Of a DNA stretch of 64,000 nt, positions 17,876 through 64,000 are shown in pieces. The stretch spans positions 22,897,069 to 22,961,068 of the forward strand of contig NC_087151.1 in the NCBI RefSeq assembly GCF_035594125.1. Direction: 5' to 3'. Every line of letters starts with the position of its first letter. Position 1 is the stretch's first letter. Both the position numbers and the translations under genes were made by a program. The DNA is from Scylla paramamosain (taxonomy: Eukaryota > Arthropoda > Malacostraca > Decapoda > Portunidae). Below the pieces are notes generated by a model that did not search any database, was not told where the DNA came from, and was given only the letters and a program-made list of their open reading frames with translations.

Positions 17876-20447
17876 TTTTTTTTTATGAAGGAGAGACACT
17901 TGCCGAGGGCAACAAAAATCCAATAAAAAAAATAGTAATAAAAAAAGAAGCCCACTGAGATACCAGTCCCAGAAAAGGGTCCAAAGCAGTAGTCAAAAAC
18001 TGAAGGATAAGTGTCTTCAACCTCACCCTTGAAGGAATTCGTCATAGGAAGATGGAAATGCAGAAGCAGGCAGGGAGTTCCAGAATTTACCAGAGAAAGG
18101 GATGAATGACTGAGAATGCTGGTTAACTCATGCATTAGAGAGATGGACAGAATTGGGGTGGGAGAAAGAAGAAAGTCCTTTGCAGTGAGTCCGCGGGAGG
18201 AGGGGAGGCACGCAGTTAGCAAGATCAGAAGAGCAGTTAGCATGAAAATACCGGTAGAAGATTGTTAAAGATGCAACATTGCAGCGATGAGAGAGAGGCT
18301 GAAGACAATCAGCTGGAGAAGAAGAGGTGATGAGACGAAAAGCTTTTGATTCCACCCTGTCTAGAAGAGCAGTATGAGTGGAACCCTCTCAGACATGTGA
18401 AGCATACTTCATACAAGGACGGATAAGGCCCTTGTACAGAGTTAGCAGCAGGGGGGGGGTGTTAGAAAAACTGGCGGAGAAGTCTCAGAACGCTTAACTT
18501 TATAGAAGCTGTTTTAGCTAGAGATGAGGTGTGAGGTTTCCACTTCAGATTATAAATAAAGGATAGACCGAGGTTGCTCAGTGTAGAAAAGGGGAACAGT
18601 TGAGTGTCATTGAGGAAGAGGGGATATTTGTCTGGAAGGTTGTGTCAAGTTCATAAATGGAGGAACTGGGATTTTGAGGCACGGAACAATACCAAATTTG
18701 CTCTGCCCCAATCAGAAATTTTAGAAAGATCAGAAGTCAAGCGTTCCCTGCATGAAATGTTTACTTCTGAAGTCTATGAAAAGACATGGAAAAGTGCAGG
18801 GTGTTATCATCAGCGTAAAAGTAAATAGGACAAGAAATTTGGTCTAGAAGGTAATTGATGAATGATGAGAAGAGAGTGGGTGACAGGAAAGTATCCTGAA
18901 GAACACCACTGTTAATAGATTTAGAAGAACAGCAAAAGTTTCTTCCTGTTGAGGATAGATTCAAAATCTTTAGATAGGCACGACGGTAGTCTGAGGGATT
19001 AGAACGGTCATCCTTTTTAGGAACAGGTTGAATGTAGGCAGACTTCCAGCAAGAAGGAAGAGTAAATGTTGATAGACCGAGCTGAAAGAGTTTGAATAGG
19101 CAAGGTGCAAGCACGGAGGCACAGTTTCGGAGAACAATAGGAGGGACCCCATCAGGTCCATAAGCCTTAAGAGCATCTAGGCCAGCATGGAAAGCATCAT
19201 TGCGAAGAATTTTAATAGGTAGCATGAAGTAGTCAAGGGGTGGAGGAGAGGGAGGAACAAGCCTTGAATCGTCCAAGGTAGAGTTTTTAGCAAAGGTTTG
19301 AGCGAAGAGTTCAGCTTTAGAGATAGATGTGATAGCAGTGGTGCCATCTGGTTGAAATAAAGGAGGGAAAGAAGAAGAAGCAAAGTTATTGGAGATATTT
19401 TTGACTAGGTGCCAGAAGTCACAAGGGGAGTTAGATCTTAAAAAAAGATTTTGACACTTTCTGTTAAAGAAGGAGTTTTTGGCTAGTTGGAGAACAGACT
19501 ATGCATGGTTCCGGGAAGAAATATAAAGTGCATGAGATTCTGGTGATGTAAGGCTTAAGTACCTATGGTGGGCCACCTCTCTATCATATATAGCATATAT
19601 AACACGAGAACAAGCTGTGTTAAACCAAGGTTTGCAAGGTTTAGGTCGAGAAAAAGAGGGAAGAATGTACGCCTCTATGCCAGACACTATCATCTATGTT
19701 ATGCGCTCGGCACACAAAGAAGGGTTTCTGACACGGAAGCAGTAGTCATTCCAAGGAAAATCAGCTAAATAGTCAGGTCCCCCAAACTATCAGGGGCAAA
19801 ACGACAGAGGCATCTTCGCTCAGGTGGATCCTGAGAAGAGATTGGAGCGAGAGGACAAGATACAGATATGAGATTGTGATCGGAGGAGAAAGGGTGACAG
19901 CATAATCAGGATTAGAGGTCAGGAAAAGGTCAAGAATGTTAGGAGTATCTCCAAGACGGTCAGGAATACGAGTAGGGTGTTGCACCAATTGCTCTAGGTC
20001 GTGGAGGATAGCAAAGTTGAAGGCTAGTTCACCAGGATGGTCAGTGAAGGGAGAGAAAAGCCCAAGCTGGTGGTGATCATTGAAGTCTCCAAGAATGGAG
20101 ATCGCTGCAAAAAGGAAGAGAGTCAGAATGTGCTCACTTTGGAAGTTTAGTCAAAGAATATCTTATTGTCAGAGGAGTTAGGTGAGAGGTATACAGCACA
20201 GATAAATTTAGTTTGAGAGTGACTCTGTAGTCGTAGCCAGATAGTGGAAAACTCGGAAGATTCAAGAGCGTTGGTACGAGAGCCGTTGCGCACATACACG
20301 CAACATCCAGTTTTAGATTGAAAATGAGGATAGGGAAAGTAGGAGGGAACAAAAAAGGGGCTACTGTCAGTTGCCTCAGACACCTGAGTTCAGTGAGGAA
20401 AAGAAGATGAGGTTTAAAAGACAAAAGCTGGTGTTTTACAGATTGAA
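17876..20447 (-). mobile_element. LINE-A copy A4, 5'-truncated and internally deleted
   Basis: Minus-strand LINE-A inserted in a satellite monomer. Its 5' end (near 20447) starts in the endonuclease at the region encoding SNFQSVEHH in other copies. The 3' end lies near 17876 beside an A/T tail. Endonuclease (about 20147-20383), post-endonuclease (19499-19988), RT (18761-19276) and C-terminal (17863-18355) segments are all recognisable but frameshifted. It is the left-arm partner of the LINE-A at 62786-64000; the mirror match is visible out to about 19257, where the window ends on the other side. Confidence 0.9.
18761..19276 (-). pseudogene. LINE-A RT fragment with palm deletion
   Basis: 171 codons. 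The N-terminal part ([38 protein letters not shown]) is the RT entry region. After residue about 120 it jumps to SSKSINSGVLQD (motif B region), FINYLLDQIS and FYADDNTLHFS (the YADD catalytic box is present). The GFRQG and motif A segments between them are missing compared with the copy at 51.5-52.4 kb. The first catalytic aspartate is lost, so it cannot polymerise. Confidence 0.85.
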
Positions 20448-22480
20448 AATTAGATTGGTATGATACCTAACTACATTACCAAAAACCTGTATTATGAATG
20501 TCTTGAACTTGTTAGGTATCAAACCGCCAAAACTCATGCAAAGCTCACTATATTGGAAAATAATACATTATAAAAAACGTGGCTTTTGAGTGTTTTCAGC
20601 TACTTATATACCAAAACGATAAAACTCATGCAAAACACCCTTTATAGAGATTAACCTCATCAAAATAGTGTATTTTGAGAGTTTTTGAGCTTGTTAGGTA
20701 TCAAATCTCCAAAATGGTTGTAAAGCATCGTTTAAGGGTAATGAAACGACATTACGAGAAACGTGTCATTTGTTTGTTTATTTTATTTTATTTGTTTAAC
20801 AAATTAGGCACCAAAATGCTAAAAAGTATGGAAAAAAACTCTATTTAGAAAACTAAACAAGTTTAACAAATTGTGTGTTTTGAGCTTTTTTTAGCTTCTT
20901 ACATAAGAAATCTTAAAAAATACATACAAAACACCTTGTCTGAAGGAACAGAACAGCATTACTAAAAATATGTGTTTTGGGTGTTTTTTTTAAGTTTATT
21001 AGGTACCAAAACACATGCAAATTATCTCAAACGTGTCATATGAGTGTTTTTTAAGGCTCTTAAATGTTGAAACGCTAAAGCATATGAATATTAATCAAAA
21101 TTGAGGAAGAGAACATCATTACTAAACACTTGTATTTTGAATGTTATTCATCATGTTAGATCCTAAATCGCCAAAATGCATACAAAAACCATTTCTGAAA
21201 AAAAAAAAAAAGTATTTCCAAAAATGTGTGTTTTAAGTGTGTTTCAGTTTGTTAAGTACCAGAACACCAAAACATTTGCAAAATATCAATATGGGAAAAA
21301 TTAATTATATAATCACAAACATGTGTTACGTGTGTTTTTGATGTTCTAATGTATCAGAAAGCTAAAACACGTGAATAGTACTCTATATTAAGAAACAGAA
21401 CAGTATTTTTCATTATGTTAGGTACCAAAACGTCAAAATGCATGCAAACAAAAAAAAAAAAACAGAACTACATTACCAAAAAACTGTATGATCAATGTAT
21501 TTTTTTTATATATATTGTTAGATACCAAAACGCCAAAATGCGTGAAAAGTACAATATATTGGAAAAGAAAACAACTTTACCAAAAACGTTTATTTTAAGT
21601 GTTTTCGGATTCTAACAAACCAAAACTCTAAAACGCATGCTAAACACCCATTGTGGAGAAACAAAACAACTTTATCAAAAAGTATATTTTGAGTGTTTTG
21701 AGCTAGTTAGTTATTAAAGCCCCAAATGCATGCAAAGCATCCTATATGGGAAAACGTAACAATATTATCAGAAACGTGTTATTTGCCTGTTTCTAAACAT
21801 ATTAGGCACCTAAACGCTAAAAAGCAGGGAAAACACCCTAAAATAGACAATTAAACAATGTTATCAAAATTGTGTCTTTCCAGTGTTTATGAGCTTTTTA
21901 GGTACCAAAACTCTAATATGCATCCAAAACACCCATTCCCAAGGAACAGAAAAAATCATTACCAAAAAGGTGTGCTTTTGAGTTTATTAGGTACGTCAAA
22001 AAACATGCAAATTTGCCAGTATTGGGAAATTAAATGATATTCTCAAAGACGTGTCTTATGAGTGTTTTTGAGGTTCTTAGGTGTTAAAACACTACAACAT
22101 ATGAATAATACTCAAAGTTGAGTAACAGAATATCATTAATAAAAATGTGTATTATGAAAGTGATACACCATTTTAGGTACAAAATCTTAAATTTTTGGAG
22201 AAACAAAAAACGTTTGTTTTAATTTTTTTTTTCAAGTTTATAAGTACTAAAAGGCCAAAAAACATGCAAAATAGCCAATATAGGGATACCAAAAGATATA
22301 ATCACAACCGTGTATTATGACTGTTTTCGATTTTGTTAGATATCAGAACTCTAAAACACGTTAATAATACACTATACTGACAAACAAAACAACTTTATGA
22401 AAAAAAAAAAAACTTCTGTTATGAGTCTTATTATTGTACATTAAGTACAAAAACGATGAAATGCATAAAAAGAAACTTAC
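20448..22480 (+). repeat. 97-bp satellite, 11-monomer HOR (left arm)
   Basis: Plus-orientation satellite with the GTGTCATTTG-type marker near 20763 and 21776 (step 1013 bp). It is the reverse complement of 60760-62785. Confidence 0.85.
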
Positions 22481-23900
22481 TTTTTTGGGAATGTTCTGTT
22501 TCTCCAGAAAAGTTGTTTGTATACATTTTTGGCGTTTTTGTACTTAATATGGTGAATAAGCCTCAGAACACACTTTTAGTAATAAAGTTTTCTTTCTCAA
22601 TATAGATTAATATTTATTTGTGTTAGCTTCTCATCACCTAAAAACCGTAAAAAAAAACTCTCATAAGACACGTGTGTGGAAATATCGTTTAGTTTCCCCA
22701 TAATGGCCGATTTGTATATGTCTAGGCGTTTTGGTATATAATGAACTGAAAAAAAAAAAAACACTTAAAACACACATTATTGGTAATGTTGTTATGTTTC
22801 TCCGGACAGAGAGTTTTTGCATGCATTTTAGAGTTTTGGTACGTAAGAAGCTCAAAAAAAAAAAAAAAACACTCAAAAAACACTTTATTTGTGAGATTGT
22901 TCTGTTTCTCCTTAAGGGATGTTTTTCATGAATTTTAGCGTTTCGATACGCAAAACCTGAAAAAAACATGTTTTTGGCAGTTGTTTTATTTTCTAATAAG
23001 ATATCTTAAGATATCTTAAGATATCTAAATAAATATAAAAAAACAGTCATAATGCAGGTTTTTGGTAATATAGATGTGTTTCTTAATATACGTATATAGG
23101 TGTATATGCATACAGGTAAGCATTTTCAAGTCTTCTCACCTATCATAGTGAATAAGATTCATAATTCATAACGCTTTTCTTAATGTTGTTCTGTTTCTGA
23201 ATATAGAGTACTATTTTTGTGTTTTAGCGTCCTGATATCTTTTGTTTGTGATTAATTCGTTTCCTTTCCCTATACTGAAACCTTTGCATAGGTTTTGGCA
23301 TTTTGATATCTAACAAAAACAGTTAAAACACACGTTTTTTTTTAATATTATATGCTGATTTTATTTTTTTATTTATTTATTTATTTTTCTCCAGAAAGGG
23401 TTCTTTCTATGCATTTTGGCGTTTTGGTACGTAACATGGTGAATCACACTCATAATACACATTTTTGTAATAATGCTTTTTTTGTTCCCCCAATATAAAG
23501 GAATATTCATAAGTTTTAGCGTTTCAGCGCCGAGGAATCTTAAAAAACACTCATAAGATACGTTTGTGGTAATATCGTTTAGTTTCCTCATATGTGCTAC
23601 ATTGAATATGTTTAGGCGTTTTTGCACCTAATGAACTTAAAAACACTAAATACACACGTTTTTGATAAAGTTATGTTCCTCCGGAACATAACTTTTTTGA
23701 TACCTTAGAACATTAAAAAAAACATATACACGTTTGTGATTATATCGTTTCATAATATATGCTAATTTGCATGTATTTGGCAATTTCGTACCTAACAAGC
23801 TGAAAAACAATTAAAACTCATGCTTTTAGAATTTATTTTTTTTGTACCTAACAAACTGAAAATACTTAAAGCACACATTTTTGAAAAAAATATGTTGTTC
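22481..23900 (-). repeat. Nested inverted satellite segment (left arm)
   Basis: At about 22480 the satellite orientation flips to minus, and near 23900 it flips back. Monomer types are those of the 11-monomer HOR. The same inverted block is present in the right arm (about 59296-60760), so the inversion predates the large inverted duplication. An AAGATATCTT tandem (22998-23026) and a 13-bp-arm hairpin (23667-23695) lie within it. Confidence 0.8.
23667..23695. repeat. Perfect short inverted repeat
   Basis: AAAGTTATGTTCC, a 3-base loop, then GGAACATAACTTT. It is conserved in the right arm near 59545-59573. It sits at a junction between two non-neighbouring monomer types, so it may mark an old rearrangement point. 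Confidence 0.8.
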
Positions 23901-25855
23901 TGTTTCCCCAAGTACAAGACCAAAATCCATAGAAAGTACCCTATATGGGAAAGTAAAAGACATTAAGAGAAGCGAATTATGCGCATTTTTTTTTTTTTTT
24001 ACTTCTTAGGTACAAAAAAGCGAAAAGGCGTTAATAGCACTCTATATGGAGAAACGAAACACGCAAAAATGCTTGCAAAGTCAATTATATTAAGAAATGA
24101 AATGACATTACTAGAAACATATTTTGAGTATTTTTATGCATGTCAAGCTCCAAAACTCTAAGAAAAAACAAAAAGTATGGAAAGCACCCATTATGGGAAT
24201 AGAAAAGAACCTTACCAAAAACTTATCTTTTTCGGCTTCTTACGTACCAAAACGCTAAAACGCATGCAAAACACCCTGTAAGAAGAAACAGAATAATATT
24301 ACCAAAATAAAAAAAAAAGAGTGTTTTGAGCTTGTTACATACAAAAACGCCAAAATACATGGAAAGTACACTATAAGAGGAAACGAAAGAATATTATGAG
24401 AAACGTTTATTATGAGTGTTTTTCACCTTTTTATGCAACAAAACGTGATAAAACATGAATAGCACTCTAAATGGAGAAACTGAACATTACTAAAACTTTT
24501 ATTTTAGTGTATTTCACATGATTTAGGTACCAAAACGCCAAAATGCATGCAAAGCACTCTATATGGCGAAAAGAAACAACATTTCCAGAAAAGTGCCTTT
24601 CGAGTGTTCATTAACGTGTTAGGCAGCAAAACGCTAAAAAAAAAAAAAAAAAAACGGAAAACACTTTATATGGAAAAAGGAAACACGATTACTAAAATCA
24701 TGTCTTTTGAATGTTTTGAACTATTTATGTACCAAAACGATAAAACGCAGAGAAAACATCCCTTATGGGAAAACACAATAACGTTACCAAAAAAAAAAAT
24801 ATTATTTTGAGTGTTTTTCCTCATGTTACGTACAAAAAACGCGAAAAATGTGTAGAAAGTATCCTATATGGGGAAACGAAAGGACATTATGAGAACCGTT
24901 TATTATTAGTGTTTTTTTTTTAAGATACCAAAACTCGAGAGCACATGACACTCTATATGGAGAAACAGAACATTAACCAAAACGTGTATTTTAAATGTAT
25001 ATCACATCTTAAGGTATCAAACAACCAAAATGCATACAAAGCACATTAACTGGAAAATGGAAACGAGATTTCAAAAAAAAAATATCTTTGACGAGTGTGC
25101 TAAGCACCTTATCGCTAAAAAGCATGGAAAAGAACCTCTATGGGAAAAGAAAACAACATTACAAATAACTACTTTTTTCCGTCTTTTAAGGTACTTACGT
25201 ACCAGAACGCTAAAACGGATGGAAAACAACCTTTTGTGGCGAAACAGAATAACATTACTAAAAATCAATACCTTGTGTGTTTTTTAGCTTGTTACATAGA
25301 AAAAGCCATAATGAATGCAAAATACTCTACATGGGGAAACGAAAAGACATTACGAGAAACGTGTATTATGAATTTTGGGGCTTTTTAGGTAACAAAATGC
25401 TAAAACACATGAGTAGGACTTTATACGGAGAAAAAAGAACAACGCTACAAAAAAGTGTATTTTGAGGGCATTTCACATTGTTAGGTATCAAAACGCCAAA
25501 ATGCATGTAAAGCACTTTATATAAGAAAAGGAAAAGAAATTTCCACAAACGTGTCTTTTGACTGTTTATAAGCGTGCTAGGCACCAAAATGCTAAAAACA
25601 TGGAAAACACCCTATATGGGAAAGCAAAATATCATTACCAAAAACGATTCTTTTCATTTCTTTTTTTTAGCTACTTTCGTAGGAAACGCATGAAAACTCC
25701 ACTTATGTGCAATAATAGAATAAATTTACCAAAATCGTGTATTTTGAGTGTTTTTCAGCTTGTTACGTAGAGAAATACCAAAAAGCATGCAAACTACTGC
25801 ATATAGGGTAATGAAAAGACATTATCAGAATTATGCATTATTATTTTTATTATTA

Positions 25856-25911
<56 letters not shown>

Positions 25912-27538
25912 GGTAAGAAAACGCGAAAACTGTTAATAGCACTCTATATGGAGAAAAGGAAAAAACATAACGAAAAACGTGTATTTTTATTGTTTTATTA
26001 CATTGTTAGGTACCAAAACGCAGAAATGTATGCAGAAATGTATGTAGAAATGCATCCCCTTATATGGGGAAAAGAAAAGACATTACAAGAAACGTATCTG
26101 TTGAGTGTTTTCCTGGATATTAGGCACCAAAACGCTAAACAGCATGGAAAGTACCATATATGGAATCAGAAAACAACCTAACTAAAAACAAGTATTTTGT
26201 GCGTTTTTAACTACTTACGTACAAAAACACCAAAATATAAAGGAAAGGACATTACGAGAACCGTGTATTTTGAGTGTTTTGAGCTTCTTAGGCACCCAAA
26301 AATGCTAAAATGCATGAATAGCACTCTATAAGGAGAAAAAGAACATTACCAAAAACGTCTATTTTGAGCGTGTTTCTCATTCTTAGGTACGAAAACGCCA
26401 AAATGCACGCAAAACGCACTATATGGGGAAAGGCAACGAGATTTGAAAAAAAAAAAAAAATGTCTTTTGAGTATTTATGAGCGTGCTACGAACCATAACG
26501 CTAAAAAGTATGGAAAGCAAACTATATGGGAAAACAAACCAACATTACCCAAAAAGTCAGTAGTTTTTGAGCCAAAACGCTAAGACGTTTGTAAAGCACC
26601 CTTTATAAGGAAAAATAAACTATTACAAAAATATTAGTAATCTGAGTTTTTGAGCTTGTTACGTAGAAAAATGCCAAAATGCGTCCAAAGTATCCTGTAT
26701 AAGGTGCTAGTCACTATAACGCTTAAAAAAAATAAATAAATAAAAAGCATGGGAAGAACCTAACATTGGAAAACAAAACATTACGGAACACGTTTCTTGT
26801 CATAGTTTATGATCTAGGTACAAGTCAAAACGATAAAGCCCATGTAAAAAAAAATCTCTTTGAATGAAAATAACACTACAAAAAACAAGTATTTCGATTG
26901 TTTTTTTTTTTACTTTTTACTTACAAAATGCAAAAAGCATTTTTCTAAGTAAAAATCCAATATGTTTTTGCATTTTTACTTGCATTTGCCCAAATTGCAA
27001 AAAAAAAATATTTTATTGAAAAAACACAATAACATAAACAAAAAGAGGTTATTTGAGTGTTTTTAACCTTGTTATGGACAAAAAACGCAAAAATGCATGG
27101 AAAGTACCTTACATAGGGAAACAAAAGGACACTATGAGAAACGTTTGTTATAAGTGTTTTTGATCTTCTTGGTACCAAAACTTGAAACAGCATGAATAGC
27201 ACTCAATATGGAGAAAGATAACAAAATTGCGAAAAATATGTGTTTTGAGTGTATTTCACATTATTAGGTATCAAACCGCCAGCATATACGGAAAGCACAC
27301 TATATGGGAAAAGGAAACGACTTTAAAAAAAGAAAAAAATGTCTTTTAAATATTTATGAGTACGTGGTAGTCACTATAACCCTAAAAAGCATGGAAACAC
27401 CTTATATGAGAAAACAAAACAACTTTACCAAAAAGTTTTCTTTTTAGTGTTTTTTTTTTTTTAGCTACTTACATAGCAAAAAGCTGAAACGCATGCAAAA
27501 CACCTTTTAAGGAAAAACTGAAAAACATTCCTAAAACA
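23901..27538 (+). repeat. 97-bp satellite, 5-monomer HOR (left arm)
   Basis: Plus-orientation satellite. The monomer variant with a TTTCACATTGTTAGG-like block recurs near 24515, 25003, 25474 and 26000, about 470-525 bp apart, equal to five monomers. A (TTA)n tract interrupts it at about 25845-25912. It mirrors the right arm at 53.94-59.3 kb, which is longer by about 1.53 kb and 0.24 kb. Confidence 0.85.
25845..25912. repeat. (TTA)n microsatellite
   Basis: TTA repeats inside the satellite. The mirror (AAT)n tract lies at about 57080-57142 in the right arm, so the tract was already present before the duplication. Confidence 0.95.
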
Positions 27539-27784
27539 AGGAGGAGGCAGTAGGCACCTGCCGAAACGATAATTACTCCCAGTGAGGTCTTTAAAGCAAA
27601 GTTCAGAGGGTGCTGTGAACTTATCATTAAACCCAGCATTGATATCAATGAACGTTTCCCTTTGTGTCTCAAAACACAAGGGGGCAGTCACAGCCTTCCC
27701 TCTAAAGACAACTCTCTTCCTCCACACAAAACTACAAGCACCTAATAACACACACACCCTTCACTCAAAAAATTTAAAATCATC

Positions 27785-28099
27785 ATGGCGACTCCTACAC
27801 CAGCCTCGGAGTTCTCATCTGGGGAGGGGACCATAAATGTCCCCAGGTCGGACTGCCTTTCTGTCGACGACCCTAAGTGTCTTGACACCCCCCTCAACTT
27901 TTTCTTCATTAACTTCTGCAACATTCGCGGTCTAAGATCTAATTTTCAGTCTGTAGAACACCACCTCTCCTCTTCTAAACCTCATCTTCTTTTCCTCACT
28001 GAAACTCAGGTGTCTGAGGCAACCGACAGTAGCCCCTTTTCTATTCCCTCCTACTTTCTCTATCCTCATTTTTCGATCCAAAGCTGGATGATGTGTTAA
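27785..28099 (+). pseudogene. LINE-A endonuclease N-terminus (left arm)
   Basis: 104 codons from the natural start MATPTPASE. It contains [15 protein letters not shown] and the LLFLTETQ block with the metal-binding glutamate of APE-like endonucleases. A one-base change in the T run after residue about 95 shifts the frame, and it stops early. The right-arm copy reads on to 277 codons. Confidence 0.85.
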
Positions 28100-28296
28100 T
28101 GTGCACATTGACTTAACCTACTCTCGTGCCCACACTCTTGAATCTTCAGAGTTTTCCACCATTTGACTACGACTACAGAGTCAATCTCAAACTAAATTTA
28201 TCTGTGCTGTATACCTCTCACCTAACTCCTATAACTATAAAAAATTCTTTGACTATTTAACTTCCAAAGTGGAGCACATTCTGACTCTCTTCCCTT

Positions 28297-28900
28297 TTGC
28301 AGAGATCTCCATTCATGGAGACTTTAATGTTCACCAACCAGCTTTGGCTTTCCTCTCCCTACACTGACCATCCTGGTGAACTAGCCTTCAACTTTGCTAT
28401 ACTCCATGACCTAGAGCAATTGGTGCAGCACCCTACTCGTATTCCTGACCGTTTTGGAGATACGCCCAACATTCTTGACCTTTTCCTGACTTCTAATCCT
28501 TCTGCTTATGCTGTCACCCTTTCTTCTCCGTTGGGCTCCTCCGATCACAATCTCATCTCTGCATCTTGTCCTATCGCTCTAATCCCTCCTCAGGATCCCC
28601 CTAAGCGAAGGTGCCTCTTGCGTTTTGCCTCTGCTAGTTTGGGGGACCTGAGGAGGTATTTTTCTGACTTTCCTTGGAATGACTACTGCTTCCGTGTCAG
28701 AGACCCATCTTTGTGTGCTAAGCACATAACAGGGGTGATAGTGTCTGGCATGGAGGCGTACATTCCTCACTCTTTTTCTCGACCTAAACCTTCCAAACCT
28801 TGGTTTAACACAGCTTGTTTTCGTGCTATACATGGTAGAGAGGTGGCCCACAAAAGGTACTTAAGCCTTCCATCACAAGATCTAACTCCTCTCGTAACTT
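28297..28900 (+). pseudogene. LINE-A endonuclease C-terminal half and linker (left arm)
   Basis: The open frame here contains [28 protein letters not shown] and SSDHNLIS (the SDH catalytic motif of the endonuclease). It continues as the linker [24 protein letters not shown] and [11 protein letters not shown]. After about position 28900 the frame shifts, and the remaining codons up to 29145 translate a wrong frame. At the codon that is TAG in the right arm, this copy keeps TTG (leucine). Confidence 0.85.
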
Positions 28901-29039
28901 CTGGCATCTATCCAAAAATATCTCCAATATCTTTGCTTCTTCTTCTTTCCCTCCTTTATTTCAACTATATGGCACCACTGGTATCACATCTATTTCTAAA
29001 GCTGAACTCTTCGCTCAAACTTTTGTTAAAAACTCTACC

Positions 29040-30728: not shown

Positions 30729-35583
<4,855 letters not shown>

Positions 35584-47260: not shown

Positions 47261-47293
47261 GGAGAGCAGCGAGATGGGTCTGTAGTTGCTGGG

Positions 47294-52858: not shown

Positions 52859-53692
52859 CTAGAGGCACCTTCGCTTAGGGGGATCCTGAGGAGGGATTGG
52901 AGCGAGAGGACAAGATGCAGATATGAGATTGTGATCAGAGGAACCCAACGGAGAAGAAAGGGTGACAGCATAAGCAGAAGGATAAGAGGTCAAGGAAAGG
53001 TCAAGAATGTTGGGCGTATCTCCAAAACGGTCAGAAATACGAGTAGGGTGTTGCACCAATTGCTCTAGGTCATGGAGTATAGCAAAGTTGAAGGCTAGTT
53101 CATCAGGATGGTCAGTGAAAGGAGAGGAAAGCCAAAGCTGGTGGTGAACAGTGAAGTCTCCAAGAATGGAGATCACTGCAAAAGGGAAGAGAGTCAGAAT
53201 GTGCTCCACTTTGGAAGTTAAATAGTCAAAGAATTTTTTATAGTTATAGGTGTTAGGTGAGAGGTATACAGCACAGATAAATTTAGTTTGAGATTGACTC
53301 TGGAGTCGTAGCCAGATGGTGGAAAACTGGGAAGATTCAAGAGTGTGGGCACGAGAGTAGGTTAAGTCACTGCGCACATAAACACAACATCCAGCTTTGG
53401 ATCGAAAATGAAGATAGAGAAAGTAGGAGTGAATAGAAAAGGGGCTACTGTCAGTTGCCTCAGACACCTGAGTTTCAGTGAGGAAAAGAAGATGAGGTTT
53501 AGTAGAGGAGAGGTGGTGTTCTACAGACTGAAAATTAGATCTTAGACCGCGAATGTTGCAGAAGTTAATGAAGAAAAAGTTGAGGGGGGTGTCAAGACAC
53601 TTAGGGTCGTCGACAGAAAGGCAGTCCGACCTGGGGACATTTATGGTCCCCTCCCCAGATGAGGACTCCGAGGCTGGTGTAGGAGTCGCCAT
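52859..53692 (-). pseudogene. LINE-A APE-type endonuclease domain
   Basis: 277 codons from the natural start. Key places: [13 protein letters not shown] (about 42-54); LLFLTETQ with the metal-binding E73; [10 protein letters not shown] (138-147); ILGDFT at 176-181, where the usual N after GDF is T in this copy; [13 protein letters not shown] (207-219); SSDHNLIS with the catalytic SDH at 252-254. It ends at a TAG that is TTG in the left-arm copy; after it the same frame runs on for about 95 codons. In the family this domain nicks target DNA for target-primed reverse transcription. Confidence 0.9.
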
Positions 53693-53941
53693 GATGATTT
53701 TAAAATTTTTGAGTGAAGGGCGTTTGTGTTATTAGGTGCTTGTAGTTTTGTGTGGAGGAAGAGAGTTATCTTTAGAGGGCAGGCTGTGACTGCCCCCTTG
53801 TGTTGTGAGACACAAAGGGAATCGTTCAGTGAGGTCACTGCTGGGTTTAATGATAAGTTCACAGCATCCCCTGAACTGTGCTTTAGATCTCACTGGGAGT
53901 AATTATCGTTTCGGCAGGTGCCTACTGCCTCCTCCTTGTTT

Positions 53942-56900
53942 TTGGTAATGTTTTTCTGTTTCTCCTTAAAGGGTGTTTTGCATGCGTTTCAGCTTTTTGC
54001 TATGTAAGTAGCTAAAAAAAAAAAAAACACTACAAAGAAAACTTTTTGGTAAAGTTGTTTTGTTTTCTCATATAAGATATTTCCATGCTTCTTATGGTTA
54101 TGGTGACTACCACGTACTCATAAATATTTAAAAGACATTTTTTTTTTTAAAGTCGTTTCCTTTCCCCATATAGTGTGCTCTCCGTATATGCTGGCGGTTT
54201 GGTACCTAATAATGTGAAATACACTCAAAACACATATTTTTCGTAATTTTGTTATCTTTCTCCATATTGAGTGCTATTGATGCTGTTTCAAGTTTTAATA
54301 CCGAGAAGATAAAAAACACTCATAACAAACGTTTCTCATAGTGTCCTTTTGTTTCCCTATGTAAGGTACTTTCCATGCATTTTTGCGTTTTTTGTCCATA
54401 ACAAGTTTAAAAACACTCAAATAACTTGTTTTTGTTAATGTTATTGTGTTTTTTCAATAAAATATTTTTTTGCATTTTGGGCAAATGCAAAAAGTAAAAA
54501 AAATCCTATGTAAAAATGCAAAAAGATTTTGGATTTTGGACTAAAAACTAAAAATCCAAATTAAAAAAAGTAAAAAGTAAAAAGTAAAAAAAAAACACTC
54601 GAAATACTTGTTTTTTGTAATGTTATTTTCATTCATAGAGATTTTTTTTTACATGGGCTTTAACGTTTTGACTTGTAAGTAGATCATAAACTATGAACAG
54701 AAACGTGTTTCGTAATGTTTTGTTTTCCAATATTAGGTTCTTTCCATGCTTTTTTTTTTTTTTAGCGTTATAGTGACTAGGACGTTCATAAATTCGCAAA
54801 AGGCAGGTTTTATAAATCTCGTTTCTTATTCTCATAAAGGGTGTTTTGCGTGCATTTTGGCGTTTTGGTACATAAAAATGTGAATTACAGTCAAAATACG
54901 TGTTTTTGGTAATGTTATATTATCTCTCCATATAGAATGCTATTCATGCGTTTTCGAGTTATGCTACCTAAAAAGCTCAAAAACATTCATACGACACGGT
55001 TTTTGTAAGATCCTTTCCTTTCCCAATATAGTTTACTTCCATATATTTTGGCATTTATGTACGTAACAAGGTCAAAACACTTAAAAATACCCGTTTTTGC
55101 TAATGCTGTTGAGACGTCTCTGACACATTTCTGGAAATGTCGTTTCTTTTCCTCATATATTGTGATTTGCATGCATTTTAGCGTTATGGCATCTAAAAAT
55201 GTGAAATACACTTGGTATATTCATATTTTGTAATATTGTTCTTTTCACCAGAGTGCTATTCATGCGTTTTCGAGTTTTGGTACCTAAGAAACTCAAAAAC
55301 TCTCATAATACATGTTTGTCATAATGTCTTTTCTTTCCCCATATAGGGTACTTTCCCTGCAATTCTAAATTTTTAAATGTAACAACCTTAAAAAGCTAAA
55401 AATACTTGTTTTTTTTTTGGTAATGTAATTCTCCTTAGCCATGCCTTTCAGCGTTTTGGGTTGTAAGAAGTAAAAAAAAAATTGTCCGAAGACACACTCA
55501 ATGTTTTGTATTTGTGTTTTCCATGATTTTTAGCGTTTTTTTGGTACCTAACACAAAAAAAAAAAAACACTGAAAAGACACGTTTCTGGTAATGTCTCTT
55601 GGTTTCTCCATATAGGGGGCATTTAATGCTTTTTGCATTTTGGTATCTATCAATGTGAAAAACTCTGATAAAAAAACACGTTTTTGGAAATGTCCTTTTC
55701 TCCAAAATAGAGTGCTAATCGTGCGTTTTAACATTTTGGTACCCAAGAATCTTAAAACTCTCATAATAAAAGTTTCTTGTAATGTGTTTTCGTTATTCCG
55801 TTTAGTGTATTTTACATGCATTTTGGCTTTTTACGTAATAAGCTAAAAAAAAAAAACCCTCAAAATACACATTTTTATAAAGTTACTGTGTTTCCCTCAT
55901 AAAGGGTGTTTTGCATGAGTATTATTAGCTCAGTATGCACCTCAAAAACACTCAAAAGACACGTTTTCGGTAATGTTGTTTTCCTTTCCCTTATAAGGTG
56001 TTTTCTATGCTTTTTAGCGTTTTAGTGCCTAGCACGCTCATAACCACTCAAAAGACACGCTTCTGGAAATCTTGTTTCCTTTCCCCATATAAGGTGCTAT
56101 TTATGCACTTTCGTATTTTGGTACCTATCAATGTTAAAAACACTTAAAAATGCACGTTTTTGGTAATATTGTTTTCTTTCTACATATGTAATGCTATCCA
56201 TCTGTTTTAGCGCTTTGGTACCAAAATATAGAGTGCTTTTCATGCATTTTAATGTTTAGTTATCTAAGAAAAAAAAATATAATACATGTTTCTCGTAATG
56301 TCATTTCGTTTCCTTATACAGGATACTTTGGACGCATTTTGGCATTTTTCCACATAACAAGCTCAAAAACTAATATTTTTGTAATAGTTTATTTTTCCTT
56401 ATAAAGGGTGCTTTACAAACGTCTTAGCGTTTTGGCTTAAAAACTACTTACTTTTTTGGTAATGTTGGTTTGTTTTCCCATATAGTTTGCTTTCCATACT
56501 TTTTAGCGTTATGGTTCGTAGCACGCTCATAAATACTCAAAAGACATGTTTTTTTTTCCAAATCTCGTTGCCTGCGTTTTGCGGGCATTTTGGCGTTTTC
56601 GTACCTAAGAATGAGAAACACGACCAAATTAGACGTTTTTGGTAATGTTCTCTTTCTACTTATAGAGTGCTATTCATGCATTTTAGCGTTTTTTGTTGCC
56701 TAAGAAGCTCAAAACACTCAAAATACACGGTTCTCGTAATGTCCTTTCCTTTATATTTTGTTGTTTTTTGTACGTAAGTAGTTAAAAACGCACAAAATAC
56801 TTGTTTTTAGTTAGGTTGTTTTCTGATTCCATATATGGTGCTTTTCATGCTGTTTAGCGTTTTGGTGCCTAATATCCAGGAAAACACTCAACAGATACGT

Positions 56901-57080
56901 TTCTTGTAATGTCTTTGTTTTTTCCACATATAAGGGGATGCATTTCTACATACATTTCTGCATACATTTCTGCGTTTTGGTACCTAACAATGTAAAAAAC
57001 AATAAAAATACACATTTTTCGTAATGTTTTTTCCTTTTCTCCATATAGAGTGTTATTAACAGTTTTCGCGTTTTCTTACC

Positions 57081-57124
<44 letters not shown>

Positions 57125-59295
57125 TAATAATAATAATAATAATGCATAATTCTGATAATGTCTCTTCATTGCCCTATATGGAGTAGTCTGCATGCTTTTT
57201 GGTATTTCTCTACGTAACAAGCTGAAAAACACTCAATTTACACGATTTTGGTAAATTTATTCTATTATTGCACATAAGAGGTGTTTTCATGCGTTTCCTA
57301 CGAAAGTAGCTAAAAAAAATAAAAAGAATCGTTTTTGGTAATGATATTTTGCTTTCCCATATAGGGTGTTTTCCATGTTTTTATCATTTTGGTGCCTAGC
57401 ACGCTCATAAACAGTCAAAAGACACGTTTGTGGAAATTTCTTTTCCTTTTCTTATATAAAGTGCTTTACATGCATTTTGGCGTTTTGATACCTAACAATG
57501 TGAAATGCCCTCAAAATACTCTTTTTTGTAGCGTTGTTCTTTTTTTTCTCCGTATAAAGTCCTACTCATGCGTTTTAGCATTTTCTTACCTAAAAAGCCC
57601 AAAAATTCATAATACACGTTTCTCGTAATGTCTTTTCGTTTCCACATGTAGAGTATTTTGCATGCATTATGGCTTTTTCTACGTAACAATCTAAAAAAAA
57701 CACACAAGGTATTGATTTATAGTAATGTTATTCTGTTTCGCCATAAAAGGTTGTTTTCCATCCGTTTTAGCGTTCTGGTACGTAAGTACCCCAAAAGACT
57801 AAAAAAAGTAGTTATTTGTAATGTTGTTTTCTTTTCCCATAGAGGTTCCTTTCCATCCTTTTTAGCGATATAGTGCTTAGCACACTCGTCAAACATATAT
57901 ATATTTTTTAAATCTCGTTTCCTTTTTCCAGTTAATGTGCTTTGTATGCATTTTGGTTGTTTGATACCTAAAGATGTGATATACATTTAAAATACACGTT
58001 TTTGTTAATGTTCTGTTTCTCCATATAGAGTGTCATGTGCTCTCGAGTTTTGGTATCTTAAAAAAACACTAATAATAAACGATTATTATAATGTCCTTTC
58101 GTTTCCCCATATAGGATACTTTCTACACATTTTTCGCATTTTTTGTATGTAACATGAGGAAAAACACTCAAAAAACTTTTTTTTTTGGTAACGTTATTGT
58201 GTTTTCCCATAAGGGATGTTTTCTCTGCGTTTTATTGTTTTGGTACATAAATAGTTCAAAACACTCAAAAGACATGATTTTAGTAATCTTGTTTTCTTTT
58301 TCCATATAAAGTGTTTTCCATTTTTTTTTTTTTTTAGCGTTTTGCTGCCTAACACGCTCATGAACACTCGAAAGGCACTTTTCTGGAAATGTTGTTTCTT
58401 TTCGCTCTATAGAGTGCTTTGCATGCATTTTGGCGTTTTGGTACCTAAATCATGTGAAATACACTAAAATAAAAGTTTTAGTAATGTTCAGTTTCTCCAT
58501 TTAGATTGCTATTCATGTTTTATCACATTTTGTTACATAAGAAGGTAAAAAACACTCATAATAAACGTTTCTCATAATATTCTTTCGTTTCCTCATATAG
58601 TGTACTTTCCATGTATTTTGACGTTTTTGTACGTAACAAGCTCAAAACACTCAAATTTATTTTTATTTTGGTAATATTATTCTGTTTCTTCTTACAGGGT
58701 GTTTTGCATGCGTTTTAGCGTTTTGGTACATAAGAAGCCGAAAAAGATAAGTTTTTGGTAAAGTTCTTTTCTATTCCCATAATGGGTGCTTTCCATACTT
58801 TTTGTTTTTATCTTAGAGTTTTGGAGCTTAACATGCACAAAAATACTCAAAATATGTTTCTAGTAATGTCATTTCATTTCTTAATATAATTGACTTTGGA
58901 AGGATTTTTGCGTTTTTTTGGTACCAAAAAAAGAAAAACACTTGAAATTCAAGTTTTTGGTTATGTTCTTTTTCTCGATATAGGGTGTTACTGATGCGAT
59001 TTCGCGTTTTGGTACCTAAGAAGCTCAAAACTCTCATATCTGATATGTCTCTTATCTGAATGTCTTTTGTTTCTCCATAAAGGGTTATTTGAGTTTTAGC
59101 GTTTTGATACTTTAAATAGTTAAAAAACACACACACACAAAAAAAGGTTTTTGTCAATGGTGTTTCGTTTCTCCATATAGAGTGCTATTAACGCCTTTTC
59201 GCCTTTTTGTACCTAAGAAGTAAAAAAAAAAAATGCGCATAATTCGCTTCTCTTAATGTCTTTTACTTTCCCATATAGGGTAGTTTCTATGGATT
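53942..59295 (-). repeat. 97-bp satellite, 5-monomer HOR (right arm)
   Basis: Minus-orientation satellite, mirror of 23901-27538. It carries 54781-56311 (about three HOR units) and 58918-59160 (about 2.5 monomers), which the left arm lacks. It includes an A/T slippage patch (about 54455-54600) with AAAAGT-like repeats and an (AAT)n tract. Confidence 0.85.
57080..57142. repeat. (AAT)n microsatellite
   Basis: AAT repeats with one AAC, mirror of the (TTA)n tract at 25845-25912. Confidence 0.95.
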
Positions 59296-60760
59296 TTGGC
59301 CTTGTACTTCTTGAAACAGAACAACATTTTTCAAAAATGTGTGCTTCAAGTATTTTCAGTTTGTTAGATACAAAATAAAAAAAAATAAATAAATTTACAG
59401 AAGCATGAATTTTAATTGTGTTTCATCTTGTTAGGTACTAAATTGCCAAATACATGCAAATTAGCATATATAATGAAACGATATAATCACAACCGTGTAT
59501 ATGTTTTTTGTTCTTTTTTTTATTTTCTAAGGTATCAAAAAAGTTATGTTCCGGAGGAACATAACTTTATCAAAAACGTGTGTACTTAGTGTTTTTAAGT
59601 TCATTAGGTGCAAAAACGCCTAAACATATTCAATGTAGCACATATGAGGAAACTAAACGATATCACCACAAACGTATCTTATGAGTGTTTTTTAAGATTT
59701 TTCAGTGCTGAAACGCTAAAACTTATGAATATTCCTCTATATTGGGGAAGCAAATAAAGCATCATTACAGAAATGTGTATTATGAGTGTGATTCACCATG
59801 TTACGTACCAAAACGCCAAAATGCATAGAAAGAACCCTTTCTGGAGAAAAAAAAAAAAATAAATAAATAAAAAAAAAAAAAAAAATCTGCATATAATATT
59901 AAAAAAAAAACGTGTGTTTTAAGTGTTTTTGTTAGATATCAAAATGCCAAAACCTATGCAAAGGTTTCAGTATAGGGAAACGAAACGAATTAATCACAAA
60001 CAAAAGCTATCAGGACCCTAAAACACAAAAATAGTACTCTATATTCAGAAACAGAACAACATTAAGAAAAGCGTTATGAATTATGAATCTTATTCACTAT
60101 GATAGGTGCGAAAACTTCAAAATGCTTACCTGTATGCATATATACCTATATACTTATATTAAGAAACACATCTATATTACCAAAAACCTGCATTATGACT
60201 GTTTTTTTTTTTATTTAGCTAGATATCTTAAGATATCTTATTAGAAAATAAAATAACTGCCTAAAAATGTTTTTTTTCAGGTTTTGCGTATCAAAACGCT
60301 AAAATTCATGAAAAACATCCCTTAAGGAGAAACAGAACAATCTCACAAATAAAGTGTTTTTTGAGTGTTTTTTTTTTTTTTTTTTGAGCTTCTTACGTAC
60401 CAAAACTCTAAAATGTATGAAAAACTCTCTGTCCGGAGGAACATAACAACATTACCAATAATGTGTGTTTTAAGTGTTTTTTTTTTTTTTTCATTTCATT
60501 ATATACCAAAACGCCTAGACATTTACAAATCGGCCATTATGGGGAAACTAAGCGATATTTCCACACACGTGTCTTATGAGAGTTTTTTTTTTTACGGTTT
60601 TTAGGTGATAAAACGCTAACACAAATAAATATTAATCTATATTGAGAAAGAAAACGTTATTACTAAAAGTGTGTGTTATGAGGCTCATTCACCATATGAA
60701 GTACAAAAACGCCAAAAATGTATACAAAGAACTTTACTGGAGAAACAGAACATTTCCAAA
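59296..60760 (+). repeat. Nested inverted satellite segment (right arm)
   Basis: Plus-orientation block between two minus-orientation blocks, mirror of 22481-23900. Carries the mirror hairpin (about 59545-59573) and two AAGATATCTT units near 60221-60240, against three on the left. Confidence 0.8.
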
Positions 60761-62785
60761 AAAGTAAGTTTCTTTTTATGCATTTCATCGTTTTTGTACC
60801 TAACGTACAATAATAAAACTTATAATACACGTTTTTTTTTTTTTTCATAAAGTTTTTTGTTTGTCAGTATAGAGTATTATTCACGTGTTTTAGAGTTCTG
60901 ATATCTAAAAAATCGAAAACAATCATAATACTCGGTTGTGATTATATCTTTTGGTATCCTTATATTAGCTACTTTGCATGTTTTCTGGCCTTTTAGTACT
61001 TATAAACTTGAAAAAAAATATATAAAACAAACGTTTTTTTTTCTCCAAAAATTTAAGATTTTGTACCTAAAATGGTGTATCACTTTCATAATACACATTT
61101 TTATTAATGATATTCTGTTACTCAACTTTGAGTATTATTCATATGTTGTAGTGCTTTAACACCTAAGAACCTCAAAAACACTCATAAGACACGTCTTTGA
61201 CAATATCATTTAGTTTCCCAATACTGGCTAATTTGCATGTTTTTTTTTGCGTAACTAATAAACTCAAAAGCACACCTTTTTGGTAATGTTTTTCTGTTCC
61301 TCGAGAATGGGTGTTTTGGATGCATATTAGAGTTTTGGTACCTAAATAGCTCATAAACACTGGAAAGACACAATTTTGATAACACTGTTTAATTGTCCAT
61401 TTTAGGGTGTTTTCCATGCTTTTTAGCGTTTAGGTGCCTAATATGTTTAGAAACAGGCAAATAACACGTTTCTGGTAATATTGTTACGTTATACCGTATA
61501 GGATGCTTTGCATGCATTTGGGGCTTTAATAACTAACTAGCTCAAAACACTTAAAATATACTTTTTGATAAAGTTGTTCTGTTTCTCCAAAAAGGGTGTT
61601 TAGCATGCGTTTTAGAGTTTTGGTTTGTAAGAATTCGAAACAAAAATTAAAAGAAACGTTTTTTGGTAAAGTTGTTTTCTTTTCCAATATATTGTACTTT
61701 TCACGCACTTTGGCGTTTTGATATCTAACAATAAAAAATAAAAAACATTGATCATACAGTTTTTTGGTAATGTAGTTCTGTTTTTTTTTTTTTTGCATGC
61801 ATTTTGACGTTTTGGTACCTAACATGGTGAAAAATACTGTTCTGTTTCTTAATATAGAGTACTATTCACGTGTTTTAGCTTTCTGATACATTAGAACATC
61901 AAAAACACACGTAATACATGTTTGTGATTATATAATTCATTTTTCCCATATCGATATTTTGCAAGTGTTTTGGTGTTTTGGTACTTAACAAACTGAAAAA
62001 CACTTAAAACACACATTTTTGGAAATACTTTTTTTTTCAGAAATGGTTTTTGTATGCATTTTGGCGATTTAGGACCTAACATGATGAATAACATTCAAAA
62101 TACAAGTTTTTAGTAATGATGTTCTCTTCCTCAATTTTGATTAATATTCATATGCTTTAGCGTTTCAACATCTAAGAGCTTAAAAAAACAATCATATGAC
62201 ACGTTTGAGATAATTTGCATGTGTTTTGGTACCTAATAAACTAAAAAAAAACACCCAAAACACATGTTTTTAGTAATGCTTTTCTGTTCCTTCAGACAAG
62301 GTGTTTTGTATGTATTTTTAAAGATTTCTTATGTAAGAAGCTAAAAAAAGCTCAAAAGACACAATTTGTTAAAGTTGTTTAGTTTTCTAAATAGAGTTTT
62401 TTCCATACTTTTTAGCATTTTGGTGCCTAATTTGCTAAACAAATGAAATAAAAATAAACAAGCAAATGACACGTTTCTCGTAATGTCGTTTCATTACCCT
62501 TAAACGATGCTTTGCAACCATTTTGGAGATTTGATACCTAACAAGCTCAAAAACTCTCAAAATACGCTATTTTTATTAGGTTAATCTCTATAAAGGGTGT
62601 TTTGCATGAGTTTTATCGTTTTGGTATATAAATAGCTGAAAACACTCAAAAGCCACGTTTTTGATAATGTATTTTTTTTCCAATATAGTGTGCTTTGTAT
62701 GAATTTTGGCGGTTTGGTACCTAACAAGTTCAAGACATTCATAATACAGGTTTTTGGTAATGTAGTTAGGTTTCATACTAATCTA
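60761..62785 (-). repeat. 97-bp satellite, 11-monomer HOR (right arm)
   Basis: Minus-orientation satellite, mirror of 20448-22480. Confidence 0.85.
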
Positions 62786-64000
62786 ATTTTCAATCTGTAA
62801 AACACCAGCTTTTCTCTTTCAAACCTCATCTTCTTTTCCTCACTGAACTCAGGTGTCTGAGGCAACTGACAGTAGCCCCTTTTCTGTTCCCTCCTATATT
62901 CCCTATCCTCATTTTCAATCCAAAGCTGGATGTTGCGTGTATGTGCGCAACGGCTCTCGTAACCACGCTCTTGAATCTTCCGAGTTTTCCACTATCTGGC
63001 TACGACTACAGAGTCACTCTCAAACTAAATTTATCTGTGCTGTATACCTCTCACCTAACTCCTCTGACAATAAGAAATTCTTTGACTAAACTTCCAAAGT
63101 GAGCACATTCTGACTCTCTTCCCTTTTGCAGCTATCTCCAATCTTGGAGAATTCAATGTTCACCACCAGCTTTGGCTTTCCTCTCCCTTCACTGACCATC
63201 CTGGTGAACTAGCCTTCAACTTTGCTATCCTCCACGACCTAGAGCAATTGGTGCAACACCCTACTCGTATTCCTGACCGTCTTGGAGATACGCCTAACAT
63301 TCTTGACCATTTCCTGACCTCTAATCCTGATTATGCTCTCACCCTTTCTTCTCCATTGGACTCCTCCGATCACAATCTCATATTTGTATCTTGTCCTCTC
63401 GCTCCAATCCCTTCTCAGGATCCACCTAAGCGAAGATGCCTCTGTCGTTTTGCCTCTGATAGTTGGGGGGACCTGACTATTTAGCTGATTTTCCTTGGAA
63501 TGACTACTGCTTCCGTGTCAGAAACCCGTCTTTGTGTGCCGAGTGCATAACAAAGATGATAGTGTTTGGCATAGAGGCGTACATTCTTCCCTCTTTTTCT
63601 CGACCTAAACCTTGCAAACCTTGGTTTAATAGAGCTTGTTCTCGTGTTATATATATGCTATATATGATAGAGAGGTGGCCCAGCAAAGGTACTTAAGCCT
63701 TCTATCACCAGAATCTCATGCACTTTATATTTCTTCCCGGAACCATGCAAAGTCTGTTCTCCAACTAGCCAAAAACTCCTTCATTAACAGAAAGTGTCAA
63801 AATTTTTTTTTATGATCTAACTCCCCTTGTGACTTCTGGCACCTAGCCAAAAATATCTCCAATAACTTTGCTTCTTCTTCTTTCCCTCCTTTATTTCAAC
63901 CAGATGGCACCACTGCTATCACATCTATCTCTAAAGCTGAACTCTTCGCTTAAACCTTTGCTAAAAACTCTACCTTGGATGATTCAAGGCTTGTTCCTCC
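62786..64000 (+). mobile_element. LINE-A copy A11, 5'-truncated, runs off the window
   Basis: Plus-strand LINE-A, mirror of A4. It begins in the endonuclease ([25 protein letters not shown] at 62853-63089), continues with [17 protein letters not shown] and [10 protein letters not shown] (63248-63484) and the linker (KPCKPWFNRACS, 63463-63696). It reaches the start of the RT region at the window edge. It retains about 100 bp near 63700-63812 that copies A5 and A10 have lost. Frameshifts and a TAG near 63482 break it. Confidence 0.9.

What the first reader, a model, noticed from the sequence alone, without database searches (positions are those of the whole stretch)
19257..64000. Giant inverted repeat (arms of about 19 and at least 23 kb) built of satellite and LINEs
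Seen directly: more than ten anchors pair left and right sequences in reverse complement, and the coordinate sum is constant between identifiable indels. The arms share satellite variants, a nested inversion, three LINE-A insertions and a shared internal LINE deletion. They differ by point changes and by private events. Inference: a real, fairly old inverted duplication, possibly of a kind seen in heterochromatin, sex chromosomes or fold-back amplicons. The alternative is an assembly join of two related arrays.
Basis: seen in the sequence. Interest (0 to 1): 0.88.

Follow-up and report, generated by a model that had tools for sequence, protein, structure and literature searches.

The report
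Amplified satellite palindromes on crab chromosome
The giant mirror-image stretch of repeats in this crab-like genome is real, and it belongs to a family of at least thirteen mirror-image pairs spread over about three million bases in the middle of one chromosome, an architecture that a 2026 paper had reported only in one genus of beetles.

Summary
Confirmed and enlarged. The window is C1:22,897,069-22,961,068 of a 1.21-Gb decapod-like assembly. With flanks, the arms are 9556-38230 (28.7 kb) and 40765-75047 (34.3 kb), 95.7% identical over 25.2 kb aligned. They are a ~95-bp satellite with LINEs. One orientation switch lies between them (38191-38275); the 2.5-kb "spacer" continues the right-hand array in register.

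It is not an assembly join: a sister palindrome with both arms, spacer and junction lies 0.46 Mb away, and arms cluster by arm, not by palindrome (286 sites against 8 and 2). The 22-bp junction occurs 13 times in the genome, all on C1:20.73-23.79 Mb. An arm segment has 40 main copies there, forming 13 '+-' neighbour pairs and no '-+'; 6 of the 13 pairs hold the junction.

Best reading: a satellite/LINE array was joined head to head to a shorter copy of itself (fold-back type), then copied in both orientations, with little arm-to-arm conversion. Nearest known architecture: (peri)centromeric "macro-dyad symmetries" of Tribolium beetles. Centromere identity and function are untested.

The parts
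9556..38230 (-). Left arm of the palindrome (28.7 kb; satellite mostly in '-' orientation). Its outer part 9556-19250 pairs with 64001-75047, beyond the window.
40765..64000 (+). Right arm, in-window part; continues to window coordinate 75047 outside the window (34.3 kb in all).
38231..40764 (+). Unduplicated spacer (2.5 kb) of the same satellite, in register with the right arm.
   Evidence: monomer map; BLAST limits
38191..38275 (.). Orientation switch / inversion junction; 14-nt imperfect hairpin 38211-38224 / 38231-38244 with 6-nt loop; the 22-mer around it occurs 13 times in the genome, all on C1.
22473..23909 (+). Nested inversion in the left arm (older than the palindrome, being in both arms).
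59313..60777 (-). The same nested inversion in the right arm.
17870..20455 (-). LINE-A copy A1 (fragments), left arm; mirror 62781-65231, partly outside the window.
27508..30737 (+). LINE-A copy A2, left arm, with the shared ~95-bp internal deletion.
50751..53967 (-). LINE-A copy A2, right arm (Pfam RVT_1 9e-21; Exo_endo_phos_2 8.7e-10).
36377..37173 (+). LINE-A copy A3 fragment, left arm.
41367..42246 (-). LINE-A copy A3 fragment, right arm.
45772..47921 (-). LINE-B, Jockey-like RT with poly-A tail, private to this right arm; absent from the left arm and from both arms of the sister palindrome; no target-site duplication seen, about ten bases of target lost.
54784..56312 (+). 1.53 kb of satellite present in right arms of both palindromes and missing from both left arms.
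34791..35188 (.). Perfect (TA)n tract, left arm; mirror tract 43851-44263.
37853..37988 (.). (TA)n tract near the junction, left arm; mirror tract 41007-41254, at which the right arm has lost the equivalent of 37288-37853.

Best explanation
A palindromic amplicon. SHOWN: two 28.7/34.3-kb arms of satellite plus LINEs, a single main orientation switch, a 2.5-kb spacer that is a seamless part of the right array, the same switch in 13 places on C1:20.7-23.8 Mb, and one whole sister palindrome that keeps left and right arms distinct. INFERRED: a broken end of the array was joined head to head to a copy of itself broken about 2.5 kb further in (intrastrand fold-back, or fusion of sister chromatids with unequal ends, or a replication template switch), leaving the spacer single. 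The palindrome or parts of it were then copied, in both orientations, across about 3.3 Mb within a short span, with one traced later whole copy at about half that age, and the arms have drifted since with almost no gene conversion. No host gene was recognised in or around it (17 of 46 ORFs scanned; split genes not sought); the likely 'function' is none of its own (heterochromatic amplicon), with a possible structural role as pericentromeric dyad DNA.
For: Arms and switch. Spacer in register with the right arm. Sister palindrome within C1:23,376,001-23,421,500: R1-Rc 96.7% over 14,868 aligned bases, L1-Lc 96.3% over 13,824, its own arms 91.8-94.5% in collinear pieces over 600 bases. Site patterns over 12,673 columns: L1Lc|R1Rc 286, L1R1|LcRc 8, L1Rc|R1Lc 2; singletons 118-139 each. 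Trees: of 7 segments tried, 5 had enough rows; L1+Lc in 5 of 5, R1+Rc in the 4 of 5 that held both, at 100/98 to 100/100. Junction 22-mer 13 times, 6 forward and 7 reverse, all C1; reversed-pattern control 0 and 1. Junction read directly in 6 of the 8 loci of the first search, one of them the window itself. 40 arm copies kept, 13 '+-' neighbours, 3 '++', 1 '--', 0 '-+'; 0 of 20,000 strand shuffles reach 13. Spacer length lies inside the 766-70,466 bp (median 3,428) of human fold-back duplications (PMC3907307, passages).
Against: Only 6 of the 13 arm pairs hold an intact junction, 3 of these hold two, and 4 of 13 junction copies lie outside the listed pairs, so many copies are partial or nested and whole copying is traced for one sister only. 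By my reading of the copies, junction microhomology is only about 1 bp, less than the 2-8 bp in 13 of 21 human junctions; the 14-nt hairpin scores 11, equal to the maximum of 300 random satellite positions (95% quantile 10). The second palindrome (P2, window coordinates 120.5-161 kb) does not fit 'copied whole': 15 sites group the arms within each palindrome, 2 group like arms, 316 are singletons, and its arms join now the R and now the L rows. 14 of 40 arm copies are outside the 13 pairs. No raw reads were seen.
Confidence: 0.72

Rival explanations
1. Assembly artefact: two related arrays, haplotypes or a chimeric read joined head to head.
For: No raw reads were available; satellite arrays are prone to misassembly.
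Against: No N in 264 kb. The arms differ by 4.3% mismatches and private insertions, unlike a fold-back read. The same junction recurs 13 times, with substitutions in some copies, and a sister palindrome 3-4% diverged keeps both arms.
Confidence: 0.02
2. Functional macro-dyad: the palindromes are kept because mirror-image satellite DNA structures the (peri)centromere, as proposed for Tribolium beetles.
For: Same architecture (opposed subarrays, tens of kb, a conserved inversion site; PMC13081366, passages and one section part). The listed satellite-pattern places fall in an interior megabase zone on C1, C2, C3, C4 and C6, with strands nearly balanced genome-wide, 203 to 191. A C17 sample also has a mirrored pair, 98.7% over 1.74 kb, each copy with a switch.
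Against: No CENP-A, chromatin or FISH data. C5 has two zones, and the list is cut during C6. The C17 sample was chosen because rows showed a strand change there. Monomers are poorly homogenised (median identity 65% of 362 monomers) and arms drift freely, as neutral DNA would. One satellite family was found, not a major/minor pair.
Confidence: 0.25
3. Ordinary inversion: a direct duplication of the array, one copy of which was later inverted by recombination, rather than a fold-back.
For: Orientation changes inside the arrays are common, and direct copies at 92-96% abound.
Against: Needs a second switch at the other end of the inverted copy; the one between 1450 and 5064 spans 3.6 kb of microsatellite and LINE pieces and could not be matched. 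It does not by itself give a spacer that is the array's own end.
Confidence: 0.3
4. Sex-chromosome ampliconic palindromes maintained by gene conversion between arms (Y/W type).
For: Many large inverted pairs in one block of one chromosome.
Against: Arms 95.7% identical, grouping by arm and not by palindrome; one candidate conversion tract only (31656-32031, 375 bp identical); no host gene recognised among the 17 of 46 ORFs scanned in 264 kb.
Confidence: 0.04

Closest known systems
Macro-dyad symmetries of TmSat1/TmSat2 in Tribolium madens and congeners (PMC13081366)
   Same: Satellite arrays from a ~110-bp element that switch orientation to form palindromes of tens of kb in megabase zones, with inversion sites conserved among copies; [quoted passage not shown]
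   Different: Here one ~95-bp satellite family with LINE invasion, poorly homogenised; 13 copies of one junction on one chromosome rather than thousands genome-wide; one palindrome is shown to have been copied whole. No sequence relation was tested.
Fold-back inverted duplications with a disomic spacer (Hermetz et al. 2014, PMC3907307)
   Same: Inverted duplication with an unduplicated spacer of fitting size (2.5 kb; range 766-70,466 bp; passages) that belongs to one arm.
   Different: Interstitial and old; about 1 bp microhomology; subsequently amplified; no terminal deletion could be looked for.
Megabase clusters of tandem and inverted segmental duplications in apes (PMC12058530)
   Same: A mixture of direct and inverted copies in megabase-scale clusters (passages).
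   Different: Here the units are satellite and LINE DNA, with no host gene recognised in the parts read.
Y-chromosome palindromes with arm-to-arm conversion (recalled; Rozen 2003 seen only in a reference list)
   Same: Large paired inverted arms round a short spacer, several on one chromosome.
   Different: Arms here are 95.7% identical and evolve separately; no gene family seen.

Membership tests
Satellite macro-dyad symmetry (Tribolium type) | A satellite array that switches orientation into two opposed subarrays | tested here: met
   '-' 5064-38191 and '+' 38275-62774 in the window, the latter on to about 117 kb outside, apart from small nested inversions
Satellite macro-dyad symmetry (Tribolium type) | Length of a few to tens of kb | tested here: met
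   28.7 + 2.5 + 34.3 kb
Satellite macro-dyad symmetry (Tribolium type) | Inversion site conserved among many copies | tested here: met
   13 copies of the 22-mer with at most 2 mismatches, reversed-pattern control 0 and 1
Satellite macro-dyad symmetry (Tribolium type) | Multi-megabase (peri)centromeric regions of all chromosomes | tested here: inconclusive
   Interior megabase zones on the contigs listed, two zones on C5, list cut off during C6; centromere not tested
Satellite macro-dyad symmetry (Tribolium type) | Intermingled major and minor satellites | tested here: not met
   One ~95-bp family found; the long-period rows of Tandem Repeats Finder on the window (95-109 bp) read as the same family, and a second satellite was not seen. 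Flanks were searched only with that family's profile.
Fold-back inverted duplication | Unduplicated spacer belonging to one arm | tested here: met
   Spacer 38231-40764 in register with the right arm
Fold-back inverted duplication | Inverted microhomology of 2-8 bp at the junction | tested here: inconclusive
   About 1 bp by reading the copies; 14-nt hairpin not exceptional for this satellite
Fold-back inverted duplication | Dicentric intermediate / adjacent terminal deletion | not testable with these tools
   Old, interstitial event; no ancestral copy found
Sex-chromosome palindrome | Near-identical arms kept by gene conversion | tested here: not met
   95.7% identity; 286 sites against 8 and 2
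Sex-chromosome palindrome | Sex linkage | not testable with these tools
   no read depth by sex

The most novel reading that the evidence does not exclude
Macro-dyad satellite palindromes with a conserved inversion site are a convergent architecture of arthropod (peri)centromeric zones, present in a decapod as in Tribolium beetles, and here spread by copying palindromic blocks rather than by homogenising monomers.
Probability: 0.35. Interest if true: 0.8.

Novelty: new variant of a known kind. Interest (0 to 1): 0.6.

Why it matters
Satellite arrays are usually thought to evolve by unequal exchange between head-to-tail monomers (general knowledge). Here a unit that spreads is a palindrome of some 65 kb or large parts of it, and two sister palindromes let one date the inverted duplication and its copying separately and measure the near-absence of gene conversion between arms. 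If the zone is the centromere, it gives a crustacean counterpart to the Tribolium macro-dyads and makes the proposal that dyad structure rather than sequence matters for centromeres testable outside beetles.

Tried and rejected
Assembly join, haplotype join and chimeric read: rejected. Y-type conversion palindrome: rejected on arm identity and trees. A single simple palindrome: rejected by the flanks. Special hairpin at the switch as cause: not supported, equals the random maximum. Common monomer phase of all switches: phases of small nested inversions agree, but several are copies of one another and the C1 and C17 switches differ by 6 bp on a 47.5-bp scale, so no claim. Rfam at gathering threshold: 0 matches in the window. 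Higher-order repeat: only a weak five-monomer period (mean 0.686 at lag 5 against 0.63-0.67 at the other lags up to 10). Literature: 10 searches used; 'macro-dyad' occurs in 2 papers of the library, one only in its reference list. That no decapod case is in print rests on these searches alone. Papers: passages only of PMC3907307, PMC10164571, PMC7467729, PMC12058530, PMC8794474 and PMC13427858; outline and passages of PMC10454600; passages and part 2 of section 7 of PMC13081366.

Not done: the same copy-number test with the C17 unit (all unanswered), so generality beyond C1 rests on one chosen 10-kb sample.
Full report
WHAT WAS CHECKED. The window holds no N and its self-comparison gives a chain of inverted matches from 19251/64000 inward to 38230/40765. 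Global alignment of these in-window arms gives 95.6% identity over 18,298 aligned bases. With very short blocks and TA tracts left out, mismatch is 4.3% (Jukes-Cantor 0.044) over 17,429 bases, nearly even along the arm; the one outlier is a 375-bp identical run at 31656-32031, which 1 of 2,000 simulations reaches.

THE MATERIAL. A profile of a ~95-bp monomer gives 453 matches in the window. They run '-' from 5064 to 38191 and '+' from 38275 to 62774, with one nested inversion at mirror positions (22473-23909 and 59313-60777) and scattered single opposite-strand matches. Monomers are only about 65% alike (median of all pairs among 362), so a 95% match over tens of kb cannot come from array background. 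LINE-A and LINE-B encode reverse transcriptases (Pfam RVT_1 9e-21 and 1.3e-34). LINE-B's best hits are unnamed (71%); most named ones among the 120 listed are decapods (Portunus, Scylla, Chionoecetes, Eriocheir, Penaeus and others, about 42-78% identity), with one Branchiostoma. LINE-A's named hits are few (Armadillidium, a butterfly). The genome is 1.21 Gb in 234 contigs. I take it for a crab-like decapod; the species is not given.

THE SPACER IS NOT A SPACER. Monomers run head to tail through 40765 without a break (40614-40708, 40714-40802, 40804-40898), while the main change of orientation is at 38191-38275. So the right arm and the spacer are one array, and the left arm is most simply the added inverted copy. 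In the other copies the junction reads ...CTTTCA then TACTTG.... The left part matches the right arm up to that point and I count about 1 bp of overlap. An imperfect 14-nt hairpin sits at the switch but is no better than the best of 300 random places in the satellite.

THE SURROUNDINGS. With 70 kb on the left and 130 kb on the right, the arms extend to 9556 and 75047: 28,675 and 34,283 bases, 95.7% identity over 25,244 aligned. The 264 kb are a mosaic of direct and inverted duplications, many at 92-96%, and the satellite changes orientation many times. A second palindrome (P2, window coordinates 120.5-161 kb) has lost its centre, where an RT-like ORF lies (Pfam RVT_1 7.5e-5, below its cut-off; Penelope-like is recalled from the motif only). 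Of 46 ORFs of 160 residues or more left after a low-complexity filter, 17 were scanned against Pfam: RT, endonuclease and virus-like domains or nothing. Genes split by introns were not sought.

A SISTER PALINDROME. Within C1:23,376,001-23,421,500 lies a complete copy, turned round: right arm with right arm 96.7% over 14,868 aligned bases, left with left 96.3% over 13,824, while its own arms match each other at 91.8-94.5% in collinear pieces over 600 bases. Over 12,673 gap-free columns of L1, R1, Lc and Rc, 286 sites join like arms, 8 join arms of one palindrome, 2 the third way; singletons number 139, 123, 125 and 118. So the palindrome came first (about 2.1% per lineage) and was copied at about half that age (about 1.0%), and arms have hardly been converted; three of the eight discordant sites (31418, 31675, 31843) lie in or near the 375-bp run. 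LINE-B is absent from both sister arms and the loss of 37288-37853 from its right arm, so both are later; the 1.53-kb difference at 54784-56312 is shared by like arms and so earlier than the copying.

COPY NUMBER. A 2.2-kb arm segment gave 114 rows, all on C1 (only the best 40 candidates are scored, so a lower bound). I kept 40 main copies, C1:20.45-23.79 Mb, 20 on each strand, 80-96% identical besides itself, and dropped the shorter or weaker rows, among them two adjoining pieces at 85% and 95%. Among neighbours closer than 45 kb there are 13 '+-', 3 '++', 1 '--' and 0 '-+'; none of 20,000 strand shuffles gives 13 '+-'. The junction 22-mer occurs 13 times genome-wide, all on C1. Six of the 13 arm pairs hold a junction, three of them two; 9 of the 13 junctions lie in such pairs and 4 outside. 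So some copies are whole, some have lost the centre and some are nested. The tree of 14 inner-arm rows (242 columns) is star-like, with one well-supported fork (the left arms of the window and the sister) and two identical pairs.

WHAT DOES NOT FIT. For P2, 15 sites group the arms within each palindrome and 2 group like arms, against 316 singletons; the 15 are spread out. In the trees P2's arms join the R rows, the L rows or each other, by segment. Either P2 was formed separately, or its arms were converted early. Of the 40 arm copies 14 are not in the 13 pairs.

CHROMOSOME CONTEXT. C1 is 42.18 Mb, so the cluster is at 48-56% of its length. A satellite 25-mer with at most one mismatch occurs 203 times forward and 191 reverse (controls 0). 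The listed places fall in one interior zone on C1, C2, C3, C4 and C6, but in two on C5, with single places on C9, C13 and C36; the list is cut during C6. This suggests, but does not show, pericentromeric DNA. A 10-kb piece of C17, chosen because one search showed a strand change there, has a 1.74-kb inverted pair at 98.7% and switches in both copies.

COMPARISON. The 2026 Tribolium madens paper (passages and part 2 of section 7) describes opposed satellite subarrays up to 75 kb with conserved inversion sites in putative (peri)centromeric zones, and says they are documented exclusively in Tribolium. The present case shares the geometry, size and conserved switch; a second satellite was not found and its centromeric place is unproven, so I do not file it as a member but as a similar architecture. 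The fold-back model (PMC3907307, passages) explains the spacer; yeast work (passages of PMC7467729, and PMC10164571) shows that short hairpins and widely spaced, divergent inverted repeats can seed such joins and further rearrangement. Any absolute date needs a mutation rate; at an assumed 1-5e-9 per site per year (recalled) the arms would be some 4-22 million years old.

Noticed in passing
about 16.9-6.8 kb left of the window (L014, L015) and at window coordinates 183.5-187.3 kb (L027, L028): Two related stretches with fragmentary virus-like ORFs (Polinton-like is my reading): a B-type DNA polymerase match in the right one (PF03175, 2.9e-6) and sub-threshold hints of a protease and a capsid domain in the left one; carried along in the same duplication mosaic. 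Observed only.
   Followed up: partly
window 11483-11931, 34791-35188, 43851-44263, 41007-41254: Perfect (TA)n tracts of 248-449 bp; one of them marks the edge of a private deletion in the right arm, as if it were a fragile site.
   Followed up: partly
window 42014-42327 and 42736-43049: A 99%-identical 314-bp direct pair 722 bases apart in the right arm; the second member lies in a stretch (about 42694-43109) missing from the sister's right arm, so a recent local duplication.
   Followed up: partly
window 22473-23909, and three short inverted segments near -49.4, -37.2 and -34.7 kb: Small inversions inside the array with similar monomer phases at their ends; at least two are copies of one another.
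   Followed up: partly
L053 (C17:19449001-19459000): An inverted pair at 98.7% on another chromosome, each copy holding an orientation switch near a CAAAAAC...GTTTTTG dyad of the monomer.
   Followed up: partly
window 45772-47921: LINE-B sits in its target without a target-site duplication and with about ten target bases lost, unusual for a poly-A LINE insertion.
   Followed up: partly
window 1450-5064: A further orientation change (+ to -) across 3.6 kb of microsatellites and LINE pieces, with copies of the same module near 117-120 kb; may be the outer breakpoint of the duplication.
   Followed up: no
C1:20731550-20737222 and 20951098-20956735 (L005, L004): Two junction copies with identical 242-bp inner arms on both sides, so a very recent copy of one from the other.
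   Followed up: no
C1:20725866/20733067, 20945334/20952615, 21687498/21709853: Arm pairs that enclose two junction copies each, 7-22 kb apart, opposed in two cases and in the same sense in one: nested palindromes.
   Followed up: no
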